Assembly: GCF_034351645.1 (NCBI RefSeq)
Contig: NZ_CP133782.1
Coordinates: 129,001-193,000, forward strand
DNA from: Pseudomonas sp. DC1.2
GTDB lineage: Bacteria > Pseudomonadota > Gammaproteobacteria > Pseudomonadales > Pseudomonadaceae
Length of the DNA: 64,000 nucleotides
Direction: 5' to 3'
Both the position numbers and the translations under genes were made by a program. This document shows, one piece after another, positions 10,341 to 16,965 of this stretch. The notes beneath the pieces were generated by a model. The model made no database searches, was not told the origin of the DNA, and worked only from the letters and a program-made list of their open reading frames with translations. Within the stretch, counting starts at the first letter, position 1. Every line of letters begins with the position of its first letter.

Positions 10341-10630
10341 GGCGTTGATTCCTTTAGAGGTGTTTGATTGGGTGAAGCCAGACTCACATGTTTACTCAAG
10401 CTGATAAACGGGAGTGTAAGCCGCAACCCCAGAAACTTCCGTCACCTTGGTTGGACCCGTAAGGCCGGCTGCCTTCTAAAGAATAGGCAGTGGTGGCGGA
10501 GTATGATGCTGTAGCCCTCTACCTGCCCCTCCCTCAATAAAAATGGCGATAAGCCGGTATTTGACCACTGGCTTACGGCGGTTACTCTTCGGCCCTCATA
10601 AATGGATTTGACCTGTGAAGAGTGCTGATA
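10341..10630. other. Intergenic region before the bacteriocin gene
   Basis: This stretch of 290 bases must hold the promoters of the SDR gene and of the bacteriocin. I looked for a LexA box and for the PrtN-type pyocin box and found no convincing copy of either. No LysR helix-turn-helix remnant is visible. Confidence 0.4.
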
Positions 10631-12022
10631 ATGCCCCAGAAATTGTCTGAGGAAAGTGATGAAACACTCAAGCGCCGAGGGCTGGTACGGTGTAAAACAT
10701 GGACCTACGTCATTACTCCGATACCGCACAGCATGGAGCCATCTGGCCCCTCTAAAGCAAAAATTGCCTCAGTGCGTGAGCGGGAACAAAAGGAAGAGAT
10801 CCATCGATACGAAGCGCTTCAAAAAGCCGAGCGCGCCCGACAAGAGGAATTTCTTCGTCGATGTGACGAACGTGAAAAAGCCGAGTTACTAAAACCTCCT
10901 CCCGTTCAGGACTGCACATTTGCCAAATCCACTAGCGTGGCGAAGGGGCACGTCTGCCATCCGAACGGCACAGTCCCGTTTGAGGGCTTGGGCAATTACG
11001 GCACCTATGCCGTGCTCAGCACCCGCGAGGCCATCACCTCGGCGGGCACACCTCTTCAACTGATCGGTGGCTCAACCACGGCACTGACCTTGGCTGGCCG
11101 AGTCGGTGGCTCGTTGTCGATGGGTTTGTCCGGTGCTGCCGTCAGCGCAGGTGTTGTCGCGGGAGGTATTGCGGGTACCGTCGCGATGCTCTGGCCCAAT
11201 ACCTTTGCGTCTGACGCCGCGTTTTACAACACCGAAGAATTCGCCAATCTGGCCGCCGCCAACATTGGTGTACGGATCAACGTCAAACACCTACCCGGTG
11301 AATCAGTCAGCGCGTTCGGGGTATACACCGGCAATAACTCCGCGTGGCGAAGTGTCCCGGTGATTGCTGCCACCGCACGCGGTGATCAATTGGTCGCGGA
11401 TCTGGGTGACGGCGTAGAGTTGATCTGGACACCTGCCGTCGATACCGGCAGCGTGCTGGGCATTCCAGCGCTGGAAGGTGCCCCGCAATTACCTGCGGCG
11501 TTTGTCTTTCCCGAAGCCGACCAGGCCGAGCAACGCTATGAGCATCCGGCTAACCCACCGGACTTCCGGGACGCCATTATCTGGTTTCCGAGTCAGCCGC
11601 AAATCCTGCCGGTCTACATCTCGCTCAATGTGCGTGGTGCGCCGGGCGTGGTCACAGGCGTGGGTCAAGACGTGACGGGGATTTGGCTCGCTGGGGCAGG
11701 CATTGGGCTGGGTTCCCCAATCCCAACGCGAATTGCCGACCAGCTCAGAGGGCGCGCGTTTTCGAGTTTTGGCTCGTTCAGACGGGCGTTCTGGGTGTCT
11801 GTTTCGAGAGATCCTGAGTTGAGTTCGCAGTTCTCACCGAGAGACCTTGATCGTATGCGTGCTGGCAGAGCGCCGCGCGTCGACATTGCAGATATTGCAG
11901 GCTCTAGAATTTCACATGAGATACATCACGTTGAGTTAATTTCTGAAGGTGGAGAGGTTTACGACGTGGATAATCTACGGGTCAACACTCCCAAAAATCA
12001 TATTGAAGTACACCAGGATTAA
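10631..12022 (+). CDS. S-type pyocin/colicin-like bacteriocin with HNH DNase tip
   Basis: A 463-residue toxin. Residues 45-90 are a charged coiled coil (REREQKEEIHRYEALQKAER). A glycine/alanine-rich hydrophobic region follows at about 135-185, then the S-type pyocin domain (VADLGDGVELIWTPAVD to PVYISLNVRGAPGVVTG) up to about residue 345. The end is a colicin E9-type HNH DNase with SPIPTRIADQLRG and the metal site HEIHHVELISEGG...NTPKNHIEVH (HH-N-H-H). It would cut target-cell DNA; its immunity protein follows after nine bases. It is shorter than most S pyocins and has no obvious receptor-binding domain, so the delivery route is uncertain. The start could also be GTG 10622. Confidence 0.85.
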   Translation: MPQKLSEESDETLKRRGLVRCKTWTYVITPIPHSMEPSGPSKAKIASVREREQKEEIHRYEALQKAERARQEEFLRRCDEREKAELLKPPPVQDCTFAKSTSVAKGHVCHPNGTVPFEGLGNYGTYAVLSTREAITSAGTPLQLIGGSTTALTLAGRVGGSLSMGLSGAAVSAGVVAGGIAGTVAMLWPNTFASDAAFYNTEEFANLAAANIGVRINVKHLPGESVSAFGVYTGNNSAWRSVPVIAATARGDQLVADLGDGVELIWTPAVDTGSVLGIPALEGAPQLPAAFVFPEADQAEQRYEHPANPPDFRDAIIWFPSQPQILPVYISLNVRGAPGVVTGVGQDVTGIWLAGAGIGLGSPIPTRIADQLRGRAFSSFGSFRRAFWVSVSRDPELSSQFSPRDLDRMRAGRAPRVDIADIAGSRISHEIHHVELISEGGEVYDVDNLRVNTPKNHIEVHQD

Positions 12023-12031
12023 GGTGCAGCC

Positions 12032-12307
12032 ATGAGCGATCCATTTATCAAAAACAGCCTTGCAGATTACACAGAAAACGAGTTCGTGAAATTTCTTGAA
12101 GAAATATTTAGAGAGGATGTTGCTCCGACCGGCGAGCGAGCCGATGTGCTTGTTTTGCATTTCAATAAAATTGTCGGTCACCCCAGTAAAATGAACTTGA
12201 TTTATCGCCCGGAGCCGGGAGCCGACACATCTGCTGAAGGCATCACCAAGACCATCAAAGAGTGGCGCGAAGCCAATGGCCTACCGGGCTTTAAGCCTCG
12301 CTTCTGA
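12032..12307 (+). CDS. Colicin/pyocin DNase immunity protein 1 (Im9 family)
   Basis: A 91-residue acidic protein of the Im2/Im7/Im8/Im9 fold. The conserved helix III stretch NLIYRPEPG and the following EGITKTIKEWREANGLPGFKP are clear, while the helix I-II part (SLADYTENEFVKFLEEIF and following), which sets specificity in the family, differs from most later copies. It binds and blocks the DNase tip of the preceding gene. AAGGTG precedes the ATG. It is most like immunity protein 3 (13911-14186). Confidence 0.88.
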   Translation: MSDPFIKNSLADYTENEFVKFLEEIFREDVAPTGERADVLVLHFNKIVGHPSKMNLIYRPEPGADTSAEGITKTIKEWREANGLPGFKPRF

Positions 12308-12322
12308 TCGATCGTTCAGGAG

Positions 12323-12476
12323 TGTAGTGATCAACTAATTTCGGATACCTCGATAGGGGATTTTGACGCCATCGCTCGCTCGTAAATGGTCGGTGGCAGA
12401 TATCCCAGTTTCGAGTGCAGCCGTTCGTTGTTGTAAAACCCAAGAGGGTGTACTCAGTGATGTCGCGTATCGCTGT
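12323..12476 (-). mobile_element. IS3-type transposase 3' fragment, copy 1
   Basis: 154 bases. The reverse strand encodes the last part of an IS3-family OrfB: FYNNERLHSKLGYLPPTIYE, then the tail ending SEIS and a TGA at 12331-12333. The probable IS end TGTAGTGATCAAC starts at 12323. A frameshift breaks the frame near the GTACTC stretch. No left IS end remains: the fragment is fused straight to bacteriocin sequence at 12477. Confidence 0.75.
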
Positions 12477-12478
12477 AA

Positions 12479-12967
12479 CGCTATGAGCATCCGGCAAATC
12501 CACCGGACTTCCGGGACGCCATTATCTGGTTTCCGAGTCAGCCGCAAATCCTGCCGGTCTACATCTCGCTCAATGTGCGTGGTGCGCCGGGCGTGGTCAC
12601 AGGCGTGGGTCAAGACGTGACGGGGATTTGGCTCGCTGGGGCAGGCATTGGGCTGGGTTCCCCAATCCCAACGCGAATTGCCGACCAGCTCAGAGGGCGC
12701 GAGTTCTCAAGCTTTGATGCGTTCAGGAAGGCGTTTTGGGTTGAGGTTGGAAATGACTCAGAACTGAGCAGGCAATTCAATCAGCAAAACATAGGTCGCA
12801 TGCACGATGGCTATGCACCCAATGCTCGCTACAACGATGCTATAGGGAAAAGAAAAGTTTTTGAATTGCATCATATTGACTTGGTGTCGGAAGGTGGAGA
12901 AGTTTACGACGTAGATAATCTGCGGATTAACACTCCTAAAAATCACATCGATATTCATCGAGGTTAG
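12479..12967 (+). pseudogene. Orphan bacteriocin DNase cassette 2 (no N-terminal domains)
   Basis: The frame is open for 162 residues from RYEHPANPPDF, the point where it matches residue about 302 of the full toxin, directly after a TAA. It has no ATG in frame; the first possible start is GTG 12575, without a ribosome site. The linker region is almost identical to the full-length gene. The DNase part then diverges (EVGNDSELSRQFNQQNIGRM) but keeps an intact HNH site: FELHHIDLVSEGG...NTPKNHIDIH. It is best read as a stored toxin tip, not an independent secreted toxin. Confidence 0.8.
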
Positions 12968-12977
12968 TAGGTACGCC

Positions 12978-13241
12978 ATGAACAACAGTTTCTCGGACTA
13001 CACCGAAGCTCAGTTTATTCGCCTCATGCAGGAAATATTTACGGCTAACAATAACGGTACTCCCGACGACGTCCTGGGCGAGCTTTTGGACCAATTTTGT
13101 AAACTTGCGGAGCACCCCGATGGGACTGATTTGATCTACTACCCTGAATCGGAAGATCAATGCACCCCGGAAGGTATCACCGAAACTGTGAAAAAATGGC
13201 GCGAAGCCAACGGCTTGCCAGGCTTTAAGCCTCGCTTCTGA
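12978..13241 (+). CDS. Orphan immunity protein 2 (Im9 family)
   Basis: An 87-residue Im9-type protein: SFSDYTEAQFIRLMQEIF, DLIYYPESEDQ and EGITETVKKWREANGLPGFKP. The variable N-terminal half is close to immunity protein 5 but differs from 1, 3 and 4. It follows the DNase tip of cassette 2 by ten bases, so the pair is kept as a unit. Unlike the truncated toxin it has a complete frame, and it could be expressed to protect the cell. Confidence 0.85.
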   Translation: MNNSFSDYTEAQFIRLMQEIFTANNNGTPDDVLGELLDQFCKLAEHPDGTDLIYYPESEDQCTPEGITETVKKWREANGLPGFKPRF

Positions 13242-13256
13242 TCGATCTTTCAGGAG

Positions 13257-13410
13257 TGTAGTGATCAACTAATTTCGGATACCTCGATAGGGGATTTTGA
13301 CGCCATCGCTCGCTCGTAAATGGTCGGTGGCAGATATCCCAGTTTCGAGTGCAGCCGTTCGTTGTTGTAAAACCCAAGAGGCTGTACTCAGTGATGTCGC
13401 GTATCGCTGC
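13257..13410 (-). mobile_element. IS3-type transposase 3' fragment, copy 2
   Basis: The same 154-base fragment as at 12323-12476, with a few base changes (GGCTGTACTC instead of GGGTGTACTC) and the same fusion point to bacteriocin sequence. Confidence 0.75.
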
Positions 13411-13412
13411 AA

Positions 13413-13901
13413 CGCTATGAGCATCCGGCAAATCCACCGGACTTCCGGGACGCCATTATCTGGTTTCCGAGTCAGCCGCAAATCCTGCCGGTCTACATCT
13501 CGCTCAATGTGCGTGGTGCGCCGGGCGTGGTCACAGGCGTGGGTCAAGACGTGACGGGGATTTGGCTCGCTGGGGCAGGCATTGGGCTGGGTTCCCCAAT
13601 CCCAACGCGAATTGCCGACCAGTTCAGAGGGCGCGAGTTTTCAAGTTTCAACTCGTTTAGACGGGCGTTCTGGGTGGCTGTTTCGAGAGATCCTGAGTTG
13701 AGTTCGCAGTTCTCACCGAAAGACCTTGATCGTATGCGTGCAGGAAGTGCTCCACGCGCCACAGAGGTTGATATGGTGGGTATGAGACAGTCCCACGAGA
13801 TACATCACGTTGAGTTGATTTCTGAAGGCGGTGAGGTCTACAACGTTGATAATCTTCGGGTCAACACCCCTAAAAATCATGTCGAAGTACATCAGGGTTA
13901 A
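13413..13901 (+). pseudogene. Orphan bacteriocin DNase cassette 3
   Basis: 162 codons from RYEHPANPPDF. Here the TAA before the cassette is CAA, so the frame opens slightly farther (to a TGA at 13392), but there is still no ATG. The tip closely resembles that of the full-length toxin: SRDPELSSQFSPKDLDRMRAG and HEIHHVELISEGGEVY...NTPKNHVEVH. It differs in the segment before the HNH motif (ATEVDMVGMRQS). The HNH residues are intact. Confidence 0.8.
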
Positions 13902-13910
13902 GGTAACAAC

Positions 13911-14186
13911 ATGAGCGATCCATTCATCAAAAACAGCCTCTCGGACTACACCGAATATGAGTTCGTTAAATTCTTGGAAGAGCTTTTTAAGGAGGATGTT
14001 GCACCGACAGATGTCCGTGCAGACATCCTTTTGTTTCATTTCAGGAAAATCATCGGACACCCATGCGGTGCGGATTTGATTTACCACCCTGAGCCGGGAG
14101 CCGACACATCTGCTGAAGGCATCACCAAGACCATCAAAGAGTGGCGCGAAGCCAATGGCCTACCGGGCTTTAAGCCTCGCTTCTGA
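13911..14186 (+). CDS. Orphan immunity protein 3 (Im9 family)
   Basis: A 91-residue protein closely related to immunity protein 1: it begins MSDPFIKNSLSDYTEYEF and shares EPGADTSAEGITKTIKEWRE. Differences concentrate in helix II (VRADILLFHFRKIIGHPCG against ERADVLVLHFNKIVGHPSK), the specificity region of the family. A closely similar toxin tip precedes it. Confidence 0.85.
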   Translation: MSDPFIKNSLSDYTEYEFVKFLEELFKEDVAPTDVRADILLFHFRKIIGHPCGADLIYHPEPGADTSAEGITKTIKEWREANGLPGFKPRF

Positions 14187-14201
14187 TCGATCTTTCAGGA
14201 G

Positions 14202-14355
14202 TGTAGTGATCAACTAATTTCGGATACCTCGATAGGGGATTTTGACGCCATCGCCCGCTCGTAAACGGTCGGTGGCAGATATCCCAGTTTCGAGTGCAGC
14301 CGTTCGTTGTTGTAAAACCCAAGAGGGTGTACTCAGTGATGTCGCGTATCGCTGT
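14202..14355 (-). mobile_element. IS3-type transposase 3' fragment, copy 3
   Basis: Third copy of the 154-base transposase end, almost identical to copy 1. From this copy on, the CGCTCGTAAATGG of copies 1-2 reads CGCTCGTAAACGG, a marker shared by copies 3-5. Confidence 0.75.
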
Positions 14356-14357
14356 AA

Positions 14358-14852
14358 CGCTATGAGCATCCGGCAAATCCACCGGACTTCCGGGACGCCA
14401 TTATCTGGTTTCCGAGTCAGCCGCAAATCCTGCCGGTCTACATCTCGCTCAATGTGCGTGGTGCGCCGGGCGTGGTCACAGGCGTGGGTCAAGACGTGAC
14501 GGGGATTTGGCTCGCTGGGGCAGGCATTGGGCTGGGTTCCCCAATCCCAACGCGAATTGCCGACCAGCTCAGAGGGCGCGAGTTCTCAAGCTTTGATGCG
14601 TTCAGGAAGGCGTTTTGGGTTGAGGTTGGAAATGACTCAGAACTGAGCAGGCAATTCAATCAAGACAACATTAAACGGCTTGTAAAGGGACTGGCACCAA
14701 CGACTCGCGTGCGTGATCAGATAGGAAAGCGGATTTCCTTTGAGTTGCACCATGTTGAGCGTATCGCTGACGGCGGTGCTGTTTATCATGTGGATAACCT
14801 GCGGGCTAACACCCCAAAAAATCATATAGATATTCATAGGGAGGCTCAGTGA
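14358..14852 (+). pseudogene. Orphan bacteriocin DNase cassette 4
   Basis: 164 codons from RYEHPANPPDF after a TAA. The DNase part shares EVGNDSELSRQFNQ with cassette 2 and then becomes DNIKRLVKGLAPTTRVRDQ. The HNH site is intact: FELHHVERIADGGAVYHVDN...TPKNHIDIH. The stop overlaps the immunity start (TGATG). The first 220 codon-bases are almost identical to the other cassettes. Confidence 0.8.
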
Positions 14853-15112
14853 TGGAGCTTAAGGGCGCACTTTCTGATTACACCGAAGACCAGTTCAAAG
14901 CATTGATTCAGTCTATAAAAGACTGTGAAGGGACCGAGGATTTTCAGGCTGGGTTAATAGAACACCTGAACAGCCTTGCAGCGGGTGCCGGTGGTTCTGA
15001 CCTGATCTATTATCCTGAAAATGGTTCGGACAACTCAGCAGAAGGAGTCGTGCAGGCAATTCAGGCTTGGTGCTTGGCCAACGAACTACCAGGCTTTAAG
15101 CCTCGCTTCTGA
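14852..15112 (+). CDS. Orphan immunity protein 4 (Im9 family)
   Basis: An 86-residue Im9-type protein, the most divergent of the five: ALSDYTEDQFKALIQSIKD, SDLIYYPENGSDNSAEGVV and AWCLANELPGFKP. The ATG at 14852 has GGGAGG seven bases upstream, the best ribosome site in the array, and overlaps the toxin stop by one base. A GTG at 14849 would add one residue. Confidence 0.85.
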   Translation: MELKGALSDYTEDQFKALIQSIKDCEGTEDFQAGLIEHLNSLAAGAGGSDLIYYPENGSDNSAEGVVQAIQAWCLANELPGFKPRF

Positions 15113-15127
15113 TCGATCTTTCAGGAG

Positions 15128-15281
15128 TGTAGTGATCAACTAATTTCGGATACCTCGATAGGGGATTTTGACGCCATCGCCCGCTCGTAAACGGTCGGTG
15201 GCAGATATCCCAGTTTCGAGTGCAGCCGTTCGTTGTTGTAAAACCCAAGAGGCGGTACTCAGTGATGTCGCGTATCGCTGT
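15128..15281 (-). mobile_element. IS3-type transposase 3' fragment, copy 4
   Basis: Fourth copy of the 154-base fragment, carrying the GGCGGTACTC variant shared with copy 5, and the same junction to bacteriocin sequence. Confidence 0.75.
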
Positions 15282-15283
15282 AA

Positions 15284-15775
15284 CGCTATGAGCATCCGGC
15301 AAATCCACCGGACTTCCGGGACGCCATTATCTGGTTTCCGAGTCAGCCGCAAATCCTGCCGGTCTACATCTCGCTCAATGTGCGTGGTGCGCCGGGCGTG
15401 GTCACAGGCGTGGGTCAAGACGTGACGGGGATTTGGCTCGCTGGGGCAGGTATTGGGCTGGGTTCCCCAATCCCAACGCGAATTGCCGACCAGCTCAGAG
15501 GGCGCGAGTTCTCAAGCTTTGATGCGTTCAGGAAGGCGTTTTGGAAAGCAGTAGCAGGCGACCCTGAATTGAGTCGGCAATTCAATGAAGACAACTTAGA
15601 CCGTATACAGACAGGCTATGCACCAACTGCTCGGGATAAAGATACTGTAGGGAAAAGAAGTACGTTTGAACTGCATCACGTTGAGCGTATTGCTGACGGC
15701 GGAGCCGTATATGACGTGGATAATCTCAGGGCTAATACTCCCCAAAACCACATAGCCAATCACCGGAAACAATAG
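15284..15775 (+). pseudogene. Orphan bacteriocin DNase cassette 5
   Basis: 163 codons from RYEHPANPPDF after a TAA. The DNase part is a different variant (KAVAGDPELSRQFNEDNLDR) with FELHHVERIADGGAVYDVDN...TPQNHIANH. The HH-N-H-H residues remain, but the end is NHIANHRKQ where the other copies have NHIDIHR or NHVEVHQ. It has no translation start of its own. Confidence 0.8.
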
Positions 15776-15779
15776 ATCT

Positions 15780-16040
15780 ATGAAAAAAAGTATCTCGGAG
15801 TACACCGAAGCTGAGTTCATTCGCTTCATGCAGGAAATACGTGGGGCAAACAAGAGCGCATCAGACGAAGTGCTGGGCGAACTTTTGGAGCAATTCAGGC
15901 AGCTCACAGGCCACCCTGATGGCAGTGACCTAATCTACTACCCTGAAGACGGTGCAGATAATTCAAACGAAGGCATCACCGAAACTGTGAAAAAATGGCG
16001 CGAAGCCAATGGCCTACCGGGCTTTAAGCCTCGCTTCTGA
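15780..16040 (+). CDS. Orphan immunity protein 5 (Im9 family)
   Basis: An 86-residue Im9-type protein: SISEYTEAEFIRFMQEIRG, GSDLIYYPEDGADNSNEG and ITETVKKWREANGLPGFKP. It is closest to immunity protein 2. Four bases separate it from the cassette 5 toxin stop. The ribosome site is weak. Confidence 0.85.
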   Translation: MKKSISEYTEAEFIRFMQEIRGANKSASDEVLGELLEQFRQLTGHPDGSDLIYYPEDGADNSNEGITETVKKWREANGLPGFKPRF

Positions 16041-16055
16041 TCGATCGTTCAGGAG

Positions 16056-16209
16056 TGTAGTGATCAACTAATTTCGGATACCTCGATAGGGGATTTTGAC
16101 GCCATCGCCCGCTCGTAAACGGTCGGTGGCAGATATCCCAGTTTCGAGTGCAGCCGTTCGTTGTTGTAAAACCCAAGAGGCGGTACTCAGTGATGTCGCG
16201 TATCGCTGT
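16056..16209 (-). mobile_element. IS3-type transposase 3' fragment, copy 5
   Basis: Fifth and last copy of the 154-base fragment, identical in layout to copies 1-4 and followed by the truncated cassette 6. Confidence 0.75.
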
Positions 16210-16211
16210 AA

Positions 16212-16577
16212 CGCTATGAGCATCCGGCAAATCCACCGGACTTCCGGGACGCCATTATCTGGTTTCCGAGTCAGCCGCAAATCCTGCCGGTCTACATCTC
16301 GCTCAATGTGCGTGGTGCGCCGGGCGTGGTCACAGGCGTGGGTCAAGACGTGACGGGGATTTGGCTCGCTGGGGCAGGTATTGGGCTGGGTTCCCCAATC
16401 CCAACGCGAATTGCCGACCAGCTCAGAGGGCGCGAGTTCTCAAGCTTTGATGCGTTCAGGAAGGCGTTTTGGGTTGAGGTTGGAAATGACTCAGAACTGA
16501 GCAGGCAATTCAATCAAGACAACATTAAACGGCTTGTAAAGGGACTGGCACCAACGACTCGCGTGCGTGATCAGATA
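16212..16577 (+). pseudogene. Truncated orphan DNase cassette 6, HNH motif lost
   Basis: The frame runs from RYEHPANPPDF and copies cassette 4 exactly through the CGTGCGTGATCAGATA stretch ending at 16577. From 16578 the sequence changes to LysR gene sequence, so the HNH motif and the immunity gene are missing. The hybrid frame ends at 16640. This is the right boundary of the island. Confidence 0.8.
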
Positions 16578-16903
16578 ACTGCGTATCACGCACCACCGCC
16601 AGGCCGTTTCCGTTTGAATTTAGGGTCGATGGCGAACTGAAGGAAGTGGTCATCGACAGCGCGCTTTCAGTGTTCGGCGCGGAAATTTATGCGGCCTCGG
16701 CGATTGCCGGACTTGGCATCATCCAGTGCCCGCATTACCGGATGGAAGCGCTGATTGCCCAAGGGCTGGTGCAGGAAATCCTGACCGACACACCGCCGCC
16801 AACGATGCCGGTTTCCGTGCTGTACCCGCACAACCGACACCTGTCGCCACGGGTTCGGGTGTTTGTGGATTGGTTGGGGGAAGTGTTTGCGGGGGCGGTG
16901 TGA
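16578..16903 (+). pseudogene. 3' remnant of a LysR-family regulator gene
   Basis: The frame reads about 108 residues with the end of a LysR substrate-binding domain: RPFPFEFRVDGELKEVVIDS, AEIYAASAIAGLGIIQCP, HYRMEALIAQGLVQEILTD and SPRVRVFVDWLGEVF. The helix-turn-helix and most of the effector domain are absent, replaced by the bacteriocin array at 16577/16578. It probably derives from the regulator that once faced the SDR gene (9600-10340). Confidence 0.8.
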
Positions 16904-16915
16904 GCCGCGTCCCAA

Positions 16916-16950
16916 ATGATCGTTCCCACGCTCTGCGTGGGAACGATCAT
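16916..16950. repeat. REP-like inverted repeat
   Basis: Perfect 16-base arms (ATGATCGTTCCCACGC and its complement) around a TCT loop, between the LysR remnant and the convergent LacI-type gene. It belongs to the family seen at 22897, 26626, 33743 and 52203. It could also stop transcription from both sides. Confidence 0.8.
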
Positions 16951-16965
16951 GGCCTGAAAAATCCG

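What the first reader, a model, noticed from the sequence alone, without database searches (positions are those of the whole stretch)
10631..16577. Bacteriocin locus with a tandem reservoir of toxin-tip/immunity cassettes
One complete colicin-like DNase bacteriocin plus immunity gene is followed by five tandem units of about 0.93 kb; immunity stops at 12307, 13241, 14186, 15112 and 16040 are 926-945 bases apart. Each unit repeats the toxin's pyocin-domain linker almost unchanged (from the RYEHPANPPDF point), then a different HNH DNase tip, then, in four of five, a matching Im9-type gene. None of the tips has a start codon with a ribosome site or any delivery domain. Near-identical blocks flank variable cores, so recombination between the linker in the full gene (11532 to about 11750) and any later copy would put a new DNase and its immunity gene behind the delivery domains in one step. 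This resembles orphan CdiA-CT/Rhs tips, but in an S-type pyocin setting.
Basis: partly seen in the sequence, partly recalled or inferred. Interest (0 to 1): 0.88.

Follow-up and report, generated by a model that had tools for sequence, protein, structure and literature searches.

The report
Spare toxin-tip cassettes behind DNase toxin
Behind one complete antibacterial DNA-cutting toxin gene, this Pseudomonas genome keeps a row of unstarted spare toxin tips, most with an antidote gene, in near-identical wrappers that look suited to swapping by recombination; such rows are known for other toxin families and are new here mainly in their setting and regularity.

Summary
A 463-aa Pyocin_S/colicin-type HNH DNase toxin (10631-12022) and its immunity gene are followed by five tandem units, four of 926-945 bp and one truncated. 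The 216-bp linker differs by 0-3 bases between any two of its six copies; the tip/immunity cores are 51-78% alike. No orphan tip has a start codon with a ribosome site. Four units carry an Im9-type gene. The fifth tip is unit 3's tip behind a unit-4-type linker.

Pseudomonas sp. PD9R has an 82% identical delivery half carrying our orphan tip 4 (96%), then a linker remnant and our orphan immunity 3 (92%); strain R37 carries another tip. In 17 toxins, delivery half and linker co-vary, delivery half and tip do not.

Best reading: a silent tip/immunity cassette array of a polymorphic toxin, exchanged through shared linkers, like CDI, Rhs and MafB orphans. Present-day switching and delivery route are unproven. 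New variant of a known kind.

The parts
10409..16576 (.). segment absent from the SDR-LysR site of relatives, where 624 bp (short upstream stretch and 5' part of LysR) stand instead; base 16577 matches both the toxin tip and LysR
   Evidence: blastn against the G002 and G005 sites, the same 624-bp gap in both
10631..12022 (+). full toxin gene: N-terminal part with a predicted long helix, Pyocin_S domain (11231-11620), linker (11534-11749), HNH DNase tip D0 (11750-12019)
   Evidence: low-confidence model
12032..12307 (+). Im0, Im9-type immunity gene next to the full toxin
   Evidence: PF01320, E 4.5e-29
12323..12474 (-). IS3-family remnant 1: element end and transposase C-terminus
   Evidence: 87-93% to the close IS copies in the genus, 71-74% to two others; weak rve_3 hit below cut-off; match annotated 'IS3 family transposase' in plasmid NZ_CP039632; boundary
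12479..12694 (+). unit 1 linker copy, no start codon
12695..12967 (+). unit 1 orphan DNase tip D1
   Evidence: PF21431 E 4e-55
12978..13241 (+). unit 1 immunity gene Im1
   Evidence: PF01320 E 1.2e-28
13257..13408 (-). IS3-family remnant 2
13413..13628 (+). unit 2 linker copy
13629..13901 (+). unit 2 orphan DNase tip D2, 82% aa to D0
   Evidence: PF21431 E 9.5e-52
13911..14186 (+). unit 2 immunity gene Im2
   Evidence: PF01320 over cut-off at G000:C1:142929-143174
14202..14353 (-). IS3-family remnant 3
14358..14573 (+). unit 3 linker copy
14574..14852 (+). unit 3 orphan DNase tip D3
   Evidence: PF21431 E 3.5e-54
14852..15112 (+). unit 3 immunity gene Im3; 92% aa to the orphan immunity gene of PD9R
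15128..15279 (-). IS3-family remnant 4
15284..15499 (+). unit 4 linker copy
15500..15775 (+). unit 4 orphan DNase tip D4; 96% aa to the tip of the full toxin of PD9R
15780..16040 (+). unit 4 immunity gene Im4; 93% aa to PD9R
16056..16207 (-). IS3-family remnant 5, identical to remnant 4
16212..16427 (+). unit 5 linker copy, identical to the unit 4 linker
16428..16577 (+). unit 5 truncated tip, identical to D3 up to the break; HNH region and immunity gene missing
16577..16903 (+). 3' remnant of the disrupted LysR gene
   Evidence: PF03466 E 1.5e-12 for 16646-16903; intact LysR frame next to SDR in G002

Best explanation
The locus is a polymorphic antibacterial toxin (short N-terminal part, Pyocin_S module, colicin-E7-like HNH DNase) followed by an array of silent tip/immunity cassettes. 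The toxin parts of the orphans are not expected to be made, because they lack initiation; their immunity genes have their own starts and may be. A founding duplication or homology-assisted insertion joined the downstream flank, by then the end of an IS3-family element, to the start of a toxin linker, giving a unit [linker-tip-immunity-IS end]. Near-identical linkers and immunity-tail/IS blocks then served as arms for homologous recombination, so cores could be swapped or displaced down the row while flanks stayed uniform. Shown: anatomy, lack of initiation, mosaic joints, different tips behind related N-termini across species. Inferred: the founding event, newer tips entering at the front, and use of the row today.
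For: Linkers differ by 0-3 of 216 bases and IS spacers are 97.4-100% alike, while cores of u0-u4 are 51-78% identical. Linker dS to PD9R is 0.67, about that of D4 (0.61), so cores are old and flanks freshly homogenised. Joints: u5 = u4-type linker + u3 tip; u1 and u3 identical ~89 bp into the tip; Im0/Im2 and Im1/Im4 share longer 3' tails than other pairs. PD9R carries D4-Im4 behind an 82% identical N-terminus, then a linker remnant (alignment score reached by 0 of 500 shuffles) and Im3; R37 carries another tip. In 17 toxins N-terminal (aa 95-301) and linker identity correlate (rho 0.68, Mantel p 0.001), N-terminal and tip identity do not (-0.12, p 0.83). D4 orphan versus PD9R tip: dN/dS 0.035, 4 amino-acid changes in 90, so at most ~14-16% of its branch was unconstrained. 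Units 1-4 have open frames through the tip and keep the HH...N...H...H residues. A second array with another spacer (phage lambda tail I fragment): linkers 95-99%, cores 72-85%.
Against: No same-species strain was available, so no junction variant within a population was seen. The low dN/dS covers one of four full-length orphan tips and also fits recent arrival from a strain where D4 was the live tip. D4 dS is not lower than that of the N-terminus (0.61 against 0.42), so no recent transfer between these two lineages is visible. Some array tips are as close to one another as to any outside tip found: D0-D2 82% (outside best also 82%), D1-D3 74% (outside best 72%), so part of the diversity may have arisen by duplication within the row. 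Intact rows are rare: of 99 genomes only this one had more than one intact extra tip. Orphans elsewhere carry stops or frameshifts in G116, G388 and G055, though those in G106 and G250 are open. The ordering argument rests on one relative with a decayed remnant, and u3-u4 in the window also reads D3 then D4.
Confidence: 0.7

Rival explanations
1. Immunity bank: the row is kept because the orphan Im genes protect against toxins of neighbours; the tips are passengers.
For: Orphan Im genes keep start codons, and purine-rich stretches precede at least Im0, Im2 and Im3 (my reading). Rows of extra immunity genes with few or no tips occur in relatives (L093, L095, L096). Im4 and Im3 are conserved against PD9R (dN/dS 0.04 and 0.12). 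Protection by an orphan immunity gene is reported for P. aeruginosa PAO1 (pyocin S6; passages) and suggested for V. cholerae T6SS (abstract).
Against: Tip D4 is as constrained as Im4 (0.035 against 0.038), and the four full-length orphan tips are open with their H-N-H residues kept; pure passengers should decay, as in L094.
Confidence: 0.2
2. Debris: a recent tandem amplification plus past displacement left remnants that have no use and are decaying.
For: Truncated fifth unit, IS remnant and loss of LysR are marks of unselected rearrangement. Broken orphans are seen in G116, G388 and G055, and a broken toxin fragment sits at 4.537 Mb of the same genome.
Against: Four full-length open tips and four intact orphan immunity genes; constraint on D4, Im4 and Im3.
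Confidence: 0.2
3. One ancestral cassette was amplified in place and the copies diverged by selection, with no import or swapping of tips.
For: All units share one IS/linker junction. D0-D2 (82%) and D1-D3 (74%) are about as close to each other as to the best outside tips found (82% and 72%).
Against: Core dS is 0.5 to saturated while linkers differ by 0-3 bases, with abrupt edges, which divergence in place cannot give. D4 is 96% identical to PD9R's tip but 57-73% to the other array tips.
Confidence: 0.05

Closest known systems
Orphan cdiA-CT/cdiI modules of CDI loci (Poole et al. 2011, PMC3150448; passages read)
   Same: Row of C-terminal toxin fragments downstream of the full gene, generally without translation start, with immunity genes and homologous lead-in; orphan of one strain found as the live tip of another; transposable-element sequence at the locus
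   Different: There the toxin is CdiA of a two-partner system with a VENN boundary and lead-in homology that varies between orphans; here a 463-aa Pyocin_S/DNase protein with a 216-bp linker boundary, tips of one DNase family, units on one IS-derived scaffold
Rhs orphan tips (Koskiniemi et al. 2014, PMC3967940; abstract seen)
   Same: Silent tip downstream of a main gene; recombination puts it behind the delivery part
   Different: Supported by experiment there; here inferred from comparison
MafB-CT silent cassettes of Neisseria (PMC4287609; passages read)
   Same: C-terminal cassettes without initiation codon, followed by immunity genes; cassette of one strain is the live C-terminus of another
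   Different: Different delivery protein
V. cholerae T6SS immunity arrays by sequential displacement (PMC5361080; abstract and section 13 read)
   Same: Older modules displaced down an array after entry at a conserved anchor
   Different: There orphan immunity genes remain; here whole tips remain
P. aeruginosa PAO1 pyocin S2 locus with S6-type orphan immunity gene and a 250-nt S6 toxin remnant (PMC4905994; passages read)
   Same: Tip remnant plus immunity gene left behind at an S-type pyocin locus
   Different: One remnant, not a row of open cassettes

Membership tests
Polymorphic toxin with orphan cassette array | Constant N-terminus, variable C-terminal tip between related genomes | tested here: met
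   PD9R, R37 and window: N-terminus 82% aa; tips D4, another tip, D0; Mantel test on 17 toxins
Polymorphic toxin with orphan cassette array | Downstream tip fragments without initiation signals, linked to immunity genes | tested here: met
   four of five units have an immunity gene
Polymorphic toxin with orphan cassette array | Recombination that loads an orphan onto the main gene | tested here: inconclusive
   Cross-species tip difference and mosaic joints; no within-population junctions available
S-type pyocin / colicin-like DNase bacteriocin | Pyocin_S domain plus HNH DNase plus Im9-type immunity gene | tested here: met
   DNase closest in PDB to colicin E7, then pyocins S8 and S2
S-type pyocin / colicin-like DNase bacteriocin | N-terminal receptor-binding domain | tested here: inconclusive
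   No Pfam hit before aa 201; AlphaFold2 model of low confidence (mean pLDDT 57.7) shows a long helix at 42-87
S-type pyocin / colicin-like DNase bacteriocin | P-box upstream (motif recalled) | tested here: inconclusive
   No ATTGnn(n)GT in 10341-10640 by one simple scan on one strand
T6SS effector | PAAR, VgrG, Hcp or MIX part in the protein | tested here: not met
   Pfam shows only Pyocin_S and Col-Pyo_DNase; best NCBIfam hit is the T6SS DNase VPA1263 at 199 bits against a cut-off of 900, aligned over aa 119-461 only
T6SS effector | T6SS genes next to the gene, or T6SS-dependent release | tested here: inconclusive
   No T6SS gene seen by eye among the frames of 8-19 kb (not all searched by profile); a T6SS sheath gene (VipB) lies at 5,524,714 of the genome; release not testable
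CDI (CdiA) | VENN motif and CdiA two-partner protein | tested here: not met
   No VENN in the toxin; only Pyocin_S and Col-Pyo_DNase in Pfam

The most novel reading that the evidence does not exclude
A working tip-switching locus for a short Pyocin_S DNase toxin: a decayed IS end was captured as a uniform spacer, so every cassette has the same two homology arms and any of four spare DNase/immunity pairs can be placed behind the delivery half by ordinary recombination, giving within-population variation of toxin type.
Probability: 0.35. Interest if true: 0.7.

Novelty: new variant of a known kind. Interest (0 to 1): 0.52.

Why it matters
Orphan tips of CDI, Rhs and MafB are explained as reservoirs. 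In the CDI passages I read the homologous lead-in varies between orphans, though some rows are called well ordered. Here length, spacer and linker are almost the same in every unit, so the exchange model makes sharp predictions (which junctions, which arms, recA dependence) that a culture and a PCR can test. It also extends the orphan-tip theme to small Pyocin_S/DNase toxins, for which the searches made here turned up a single remnant and orphan immunity genes but no multi-unit tip row.

Tried and rejected
Tried without result: AlphaFold2 of the toxin on a 17-row alignment gave mean pLDDT 57.7, too poor for a fold search, so none was run. The phage records gave no match to toxin plus Im0 at blastn sensitivity. 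The plasmid records gave three matches, each covering 16% of unit 0-1 and lying in the IS spacers. The tandem-repeat finder reported nothing, its longest period being 500. Promoter scan: one site against 4.4 expected, inside tip D1; terminator scan: 14 against 6.5 expected, including one short stem-loop in each IS remnant, not pursued. Twenty-five viral loci with relatives were fetched and not analysed.

Considered and rejected: divergence in place after amplification as the whole story (rival 3); assembly artefact (the genome is one contig, and unit cores differ); recent transfer of D4 between PD9R's lineage and this one (dS too high).

Selection to know: the 17 toxins were picked from the best hits in hand; broken or partial ones (L094, L104, L106, L108, L109, L110) and duplicates (L091, L092) were left out, and L100 and L107 entered with incomplete N-termini. 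In one search the number of nonsynonymous sites was typed in (207); one search recomputed it as 211.

Literature searches: in an open-licence library only, so 'not in print' means not found there. read 'Pyocin_S' as 'pyocins'.
Full report
What is there. The toxin at 10631-12022 (463 aa) has a Pyocin_S domain and a Col-Pyo_DNase tip; Im0 follows at 12032-12307. By sequence the tip is closest in the PDB to colicin E7, then pyocins S8 and S2. Repeat copies follow at spacings of 945, 934, 945, 926 and 928 bases. Each unit holds a 216-bp linker copy, a DNase tip and, in units 1-4, an immunity gene. The orphan tips have no usable start: an in-frame stop lies 3 nt (units 1, 3, 4, 5) or 21 nt (unit 2) upstream of the linker, and the first possible start in all five is the same GTG inside the linker, preceded by CGGTCTACATCTCGCTCAAT, which by my reading holds no ribosome site. 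Unit 5 ends at 16577 in the middle of the tip.

The ~150-bp spacer between each immunity gene and the next linker is the end of an IS3-family element, carrying the transposase C-terminus on the minus strand. It is 87-93% identical to the close copies elsewhere in the genus and 71-74% to two others. IS copies in other genomes share an element of about 1.25 kb (L008/L011) or 1.4 kb (L012/L036) beginning or ending at this sequence, and a plasmid match is annotated 'IS3 family transposase'. The reading frame of the remnant is shifted (my reading of the sequence). The insert, about 10409-16576, lies where relatives have an SDR gene beside a divergent LysR gene. Against both G002 and G005 exactly 624 bp, mostly the 5' part of LysR, are missing, and the 3' end of LysR remains.

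Identity along the unit. Aligning u0-u4, the linker is 98-100% identical, the cores fall to 49-72% per 50-bp step, and identity returns to 93-100% from the end of the immunity gene through the spacer. Over all 15 pairs the linkers differ by 0-3 of 216 bases; the five spacers are 97.4-100% identical. Edges differ between pairs. Nine of 15 pairs part at column 219-220, three or four bases into the tip; u1 and u3 stay identical to column 304; u3 and u5 to the truncation. On the 3' side, of the ten pairs among u0-u4, u0/u2 rejoin at column 686, u1/u4 at 724, the others at 745-763. u5 has the linker of u4 but the tip of u3. These are recombination joints. Synonymous divergence between cores is 0.5 to saturated.

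Relatives. The one scan of the named genome collection gave four relatives. Two have an N-terminus 82% identical to ours. In Pseudomonas sp. PD9R it carries tip D4 (95.6% aa) and Im4 (93%), which are orphans in our window. Behind them lie a linker remnant of about 80 bp, whose alignment to our linker beats all of 500 shuffles and which is closer to our linker than to PD9R's own live one (scores 60 and 34), and an immunity gene 92% identical to our Im3. In Pseudomonas sp. R37 the tip is a third kind, 67% identical to D3. DNA identity of window and PD9R is 85% for N-terminus and linker, 89% for D4, 87% for Im4 and 90% for Im3; the neighbourhood of the PD9R site is 82-84% identical in our genome. 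So these cassettes look about as old as the species split, and no recent transfer between these two is needed. PD9R and R37 keep the toxin between a LysR gene and a ketosynthase gene. In our genome that site holds other genes over 7.8 kb, so the toxin sits at a different place here.

Constraint. Orphan D4 against the live D4 of PD9R: dN/dS 0.035, against 0.24 for the N-terminus. Four amino acids of 90 differ; with the 95% Poisson upper limit and half of dS on our branch, at most ~14-16% of that branch could have been unconstrained. So D4 was a working tip until recently, here or in a donor. This could be tested for one of four full-length orphan tips; Im4 and Im3 give 0.04 and 0.12.

Exchange in general. 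In 17 aligned toxins, identity over aa 95-301 predicts linker identity (rho 0.68, Mantel p 0.001 with 999 shuffles) but not tip identity (rho -0.12, p 0.83). The window's D0 is 82% identical to the tip of G016, whose N-terminal part is 46% identical; it is also 82% identical to D2 of the same array. D1, an orphan here, is 71-72% identical to tips in long open frames (447-497 aa) of G199, G353, G396 and G162, and 74-75% to D3 of the same array. So the linker travels with the N-terminus and the tip is the moving part, while some cassettes of the row may be older duplicates of one another.

Other arrays. L094 (G116) has a main gene, itself broken in the N-terminal part, and two orphan linker-tip-immunity units. 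Spacers there hold a fragment of a phage lambda tail I gene; linkers are 95-99% and cores 72-85% identical; the orphans carry a frameshift, stops or a changed histidine. It is an independent case of the same geometry. L160 (G388) has one orphan unit with a stop behind a full gene, and L159 (G106, cut by the contig end) two open linker-tip-immunity units. L111 (G055) has an orphan with a stop behind a gene with a 648-aa frame. In G116, G388, G106 and G250 similarity to the toxin begins some 19-31 codons upstream of the linker. In the 99-genome search with the DNase profile 45 had a hit. By reading the table, 7 of the 45 (G000, G011, G020, G024, G045, G055, G058) have two or more separate DNase-domain hits within about 1.5 kb that are not in one frame, several of them fragments and one below the cut-off; only G000 has more than one intact full-length extra tip. 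The larger searches (398 genomes) list only top rows, so no rate is claimed from them.

How it most likely works. Shown: a full toxin and a row of tip cassettes that lack translation starts, uniform arms, joints of past recombination, and different tips behind related N-termini across species. Inferred: the founding unit arose when a downstream flank ending in an IS was joined to the linker start, by duplication or by homology-facilitated illegitimate recombination as proposed for V. cholerae immunity arrays (section 13 of PMC5361080). Later exchange ran through linker and immunity tail/IS. A single crossover loads a new tip but deletes what lies between, including Im0; a double exchange does not. 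Not shown: that it happens now, whether orphan immunity genes are expressed, and how the toxin is delivered. Pfam recognises no receptor-binding or T6SS domain in the protein. A Yersinia PAAR effector ends in a Pyocin_S-type DNase part (passages of PMC11237486), and the NCBIfam model of the Vibrio T6SS effector VPA1263 matches our toxin below its cut-off. The genome has a T6SS sheath gene elsewhere.

Compared with what is known. [quoted passage not shown] Switching of an Rhs orphan is supported by experiment (abstract of PMC3967940). Zhang et al. 2012 state the general cassette principle and list PyocinS among contexts of the ColE7-type tip (passages of PMC3482391). For pyocins, PAO1 keeps a 250-nt S6 remnant and its immunity gene (passages of PMC4905994), and extra immunity genes as a possible reservoir are mentioned in PMC5358913 (passages). 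A survey of nuclease bacteriocins does not use the word orphan (term count). I therefore file it as a new variant of a known kind: same principle, new carrier, unusually regular.

Noticed in passing
L109, 7096-7972 on the minus strand (own genome about 4.537 Mb): A broken toxin fragment (last ~43 residues of the N-terminal half, linker with stops, open DNase tip 71% to D1, immunity gene 76% to Im4) is fused into what looks like a secretin-type gene (recalled): a second place where this toxin family lies inside another gene.
   Followed up: partly
L133 4334-12155 (own genome about 342-350 kb): The site where PD9R and R37 carry this toxin holds 7.8 kb of other genes here, among them two similar frames in tandem (300 and 270 aa) and a queC-like frame (recalled); it may be a variable insertion spot.
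   Followed up: partly
L094 3921-4406 and 6275-6964: The G116 array lies against a reading frame related to phage lambda tail I, and its spacers carry fragments of it, so that toxin may sit in a prophage or prophage remnant.
   Followed up: partly
L100 6983-10804 (G367): Two toxin genes of this family in tandem share an 882-bp stretch at 97% but have different tips, with a partial tip and immunity genes between them.
   Followed up: partly
window 16916-16953: Palindromic repeat (GTTCCCACGCTCTGCGTGGGAAC) just downstream of the LysR remnant, of the kind scattered through Pseudomonas genomes (recalled).
   Followed up: no
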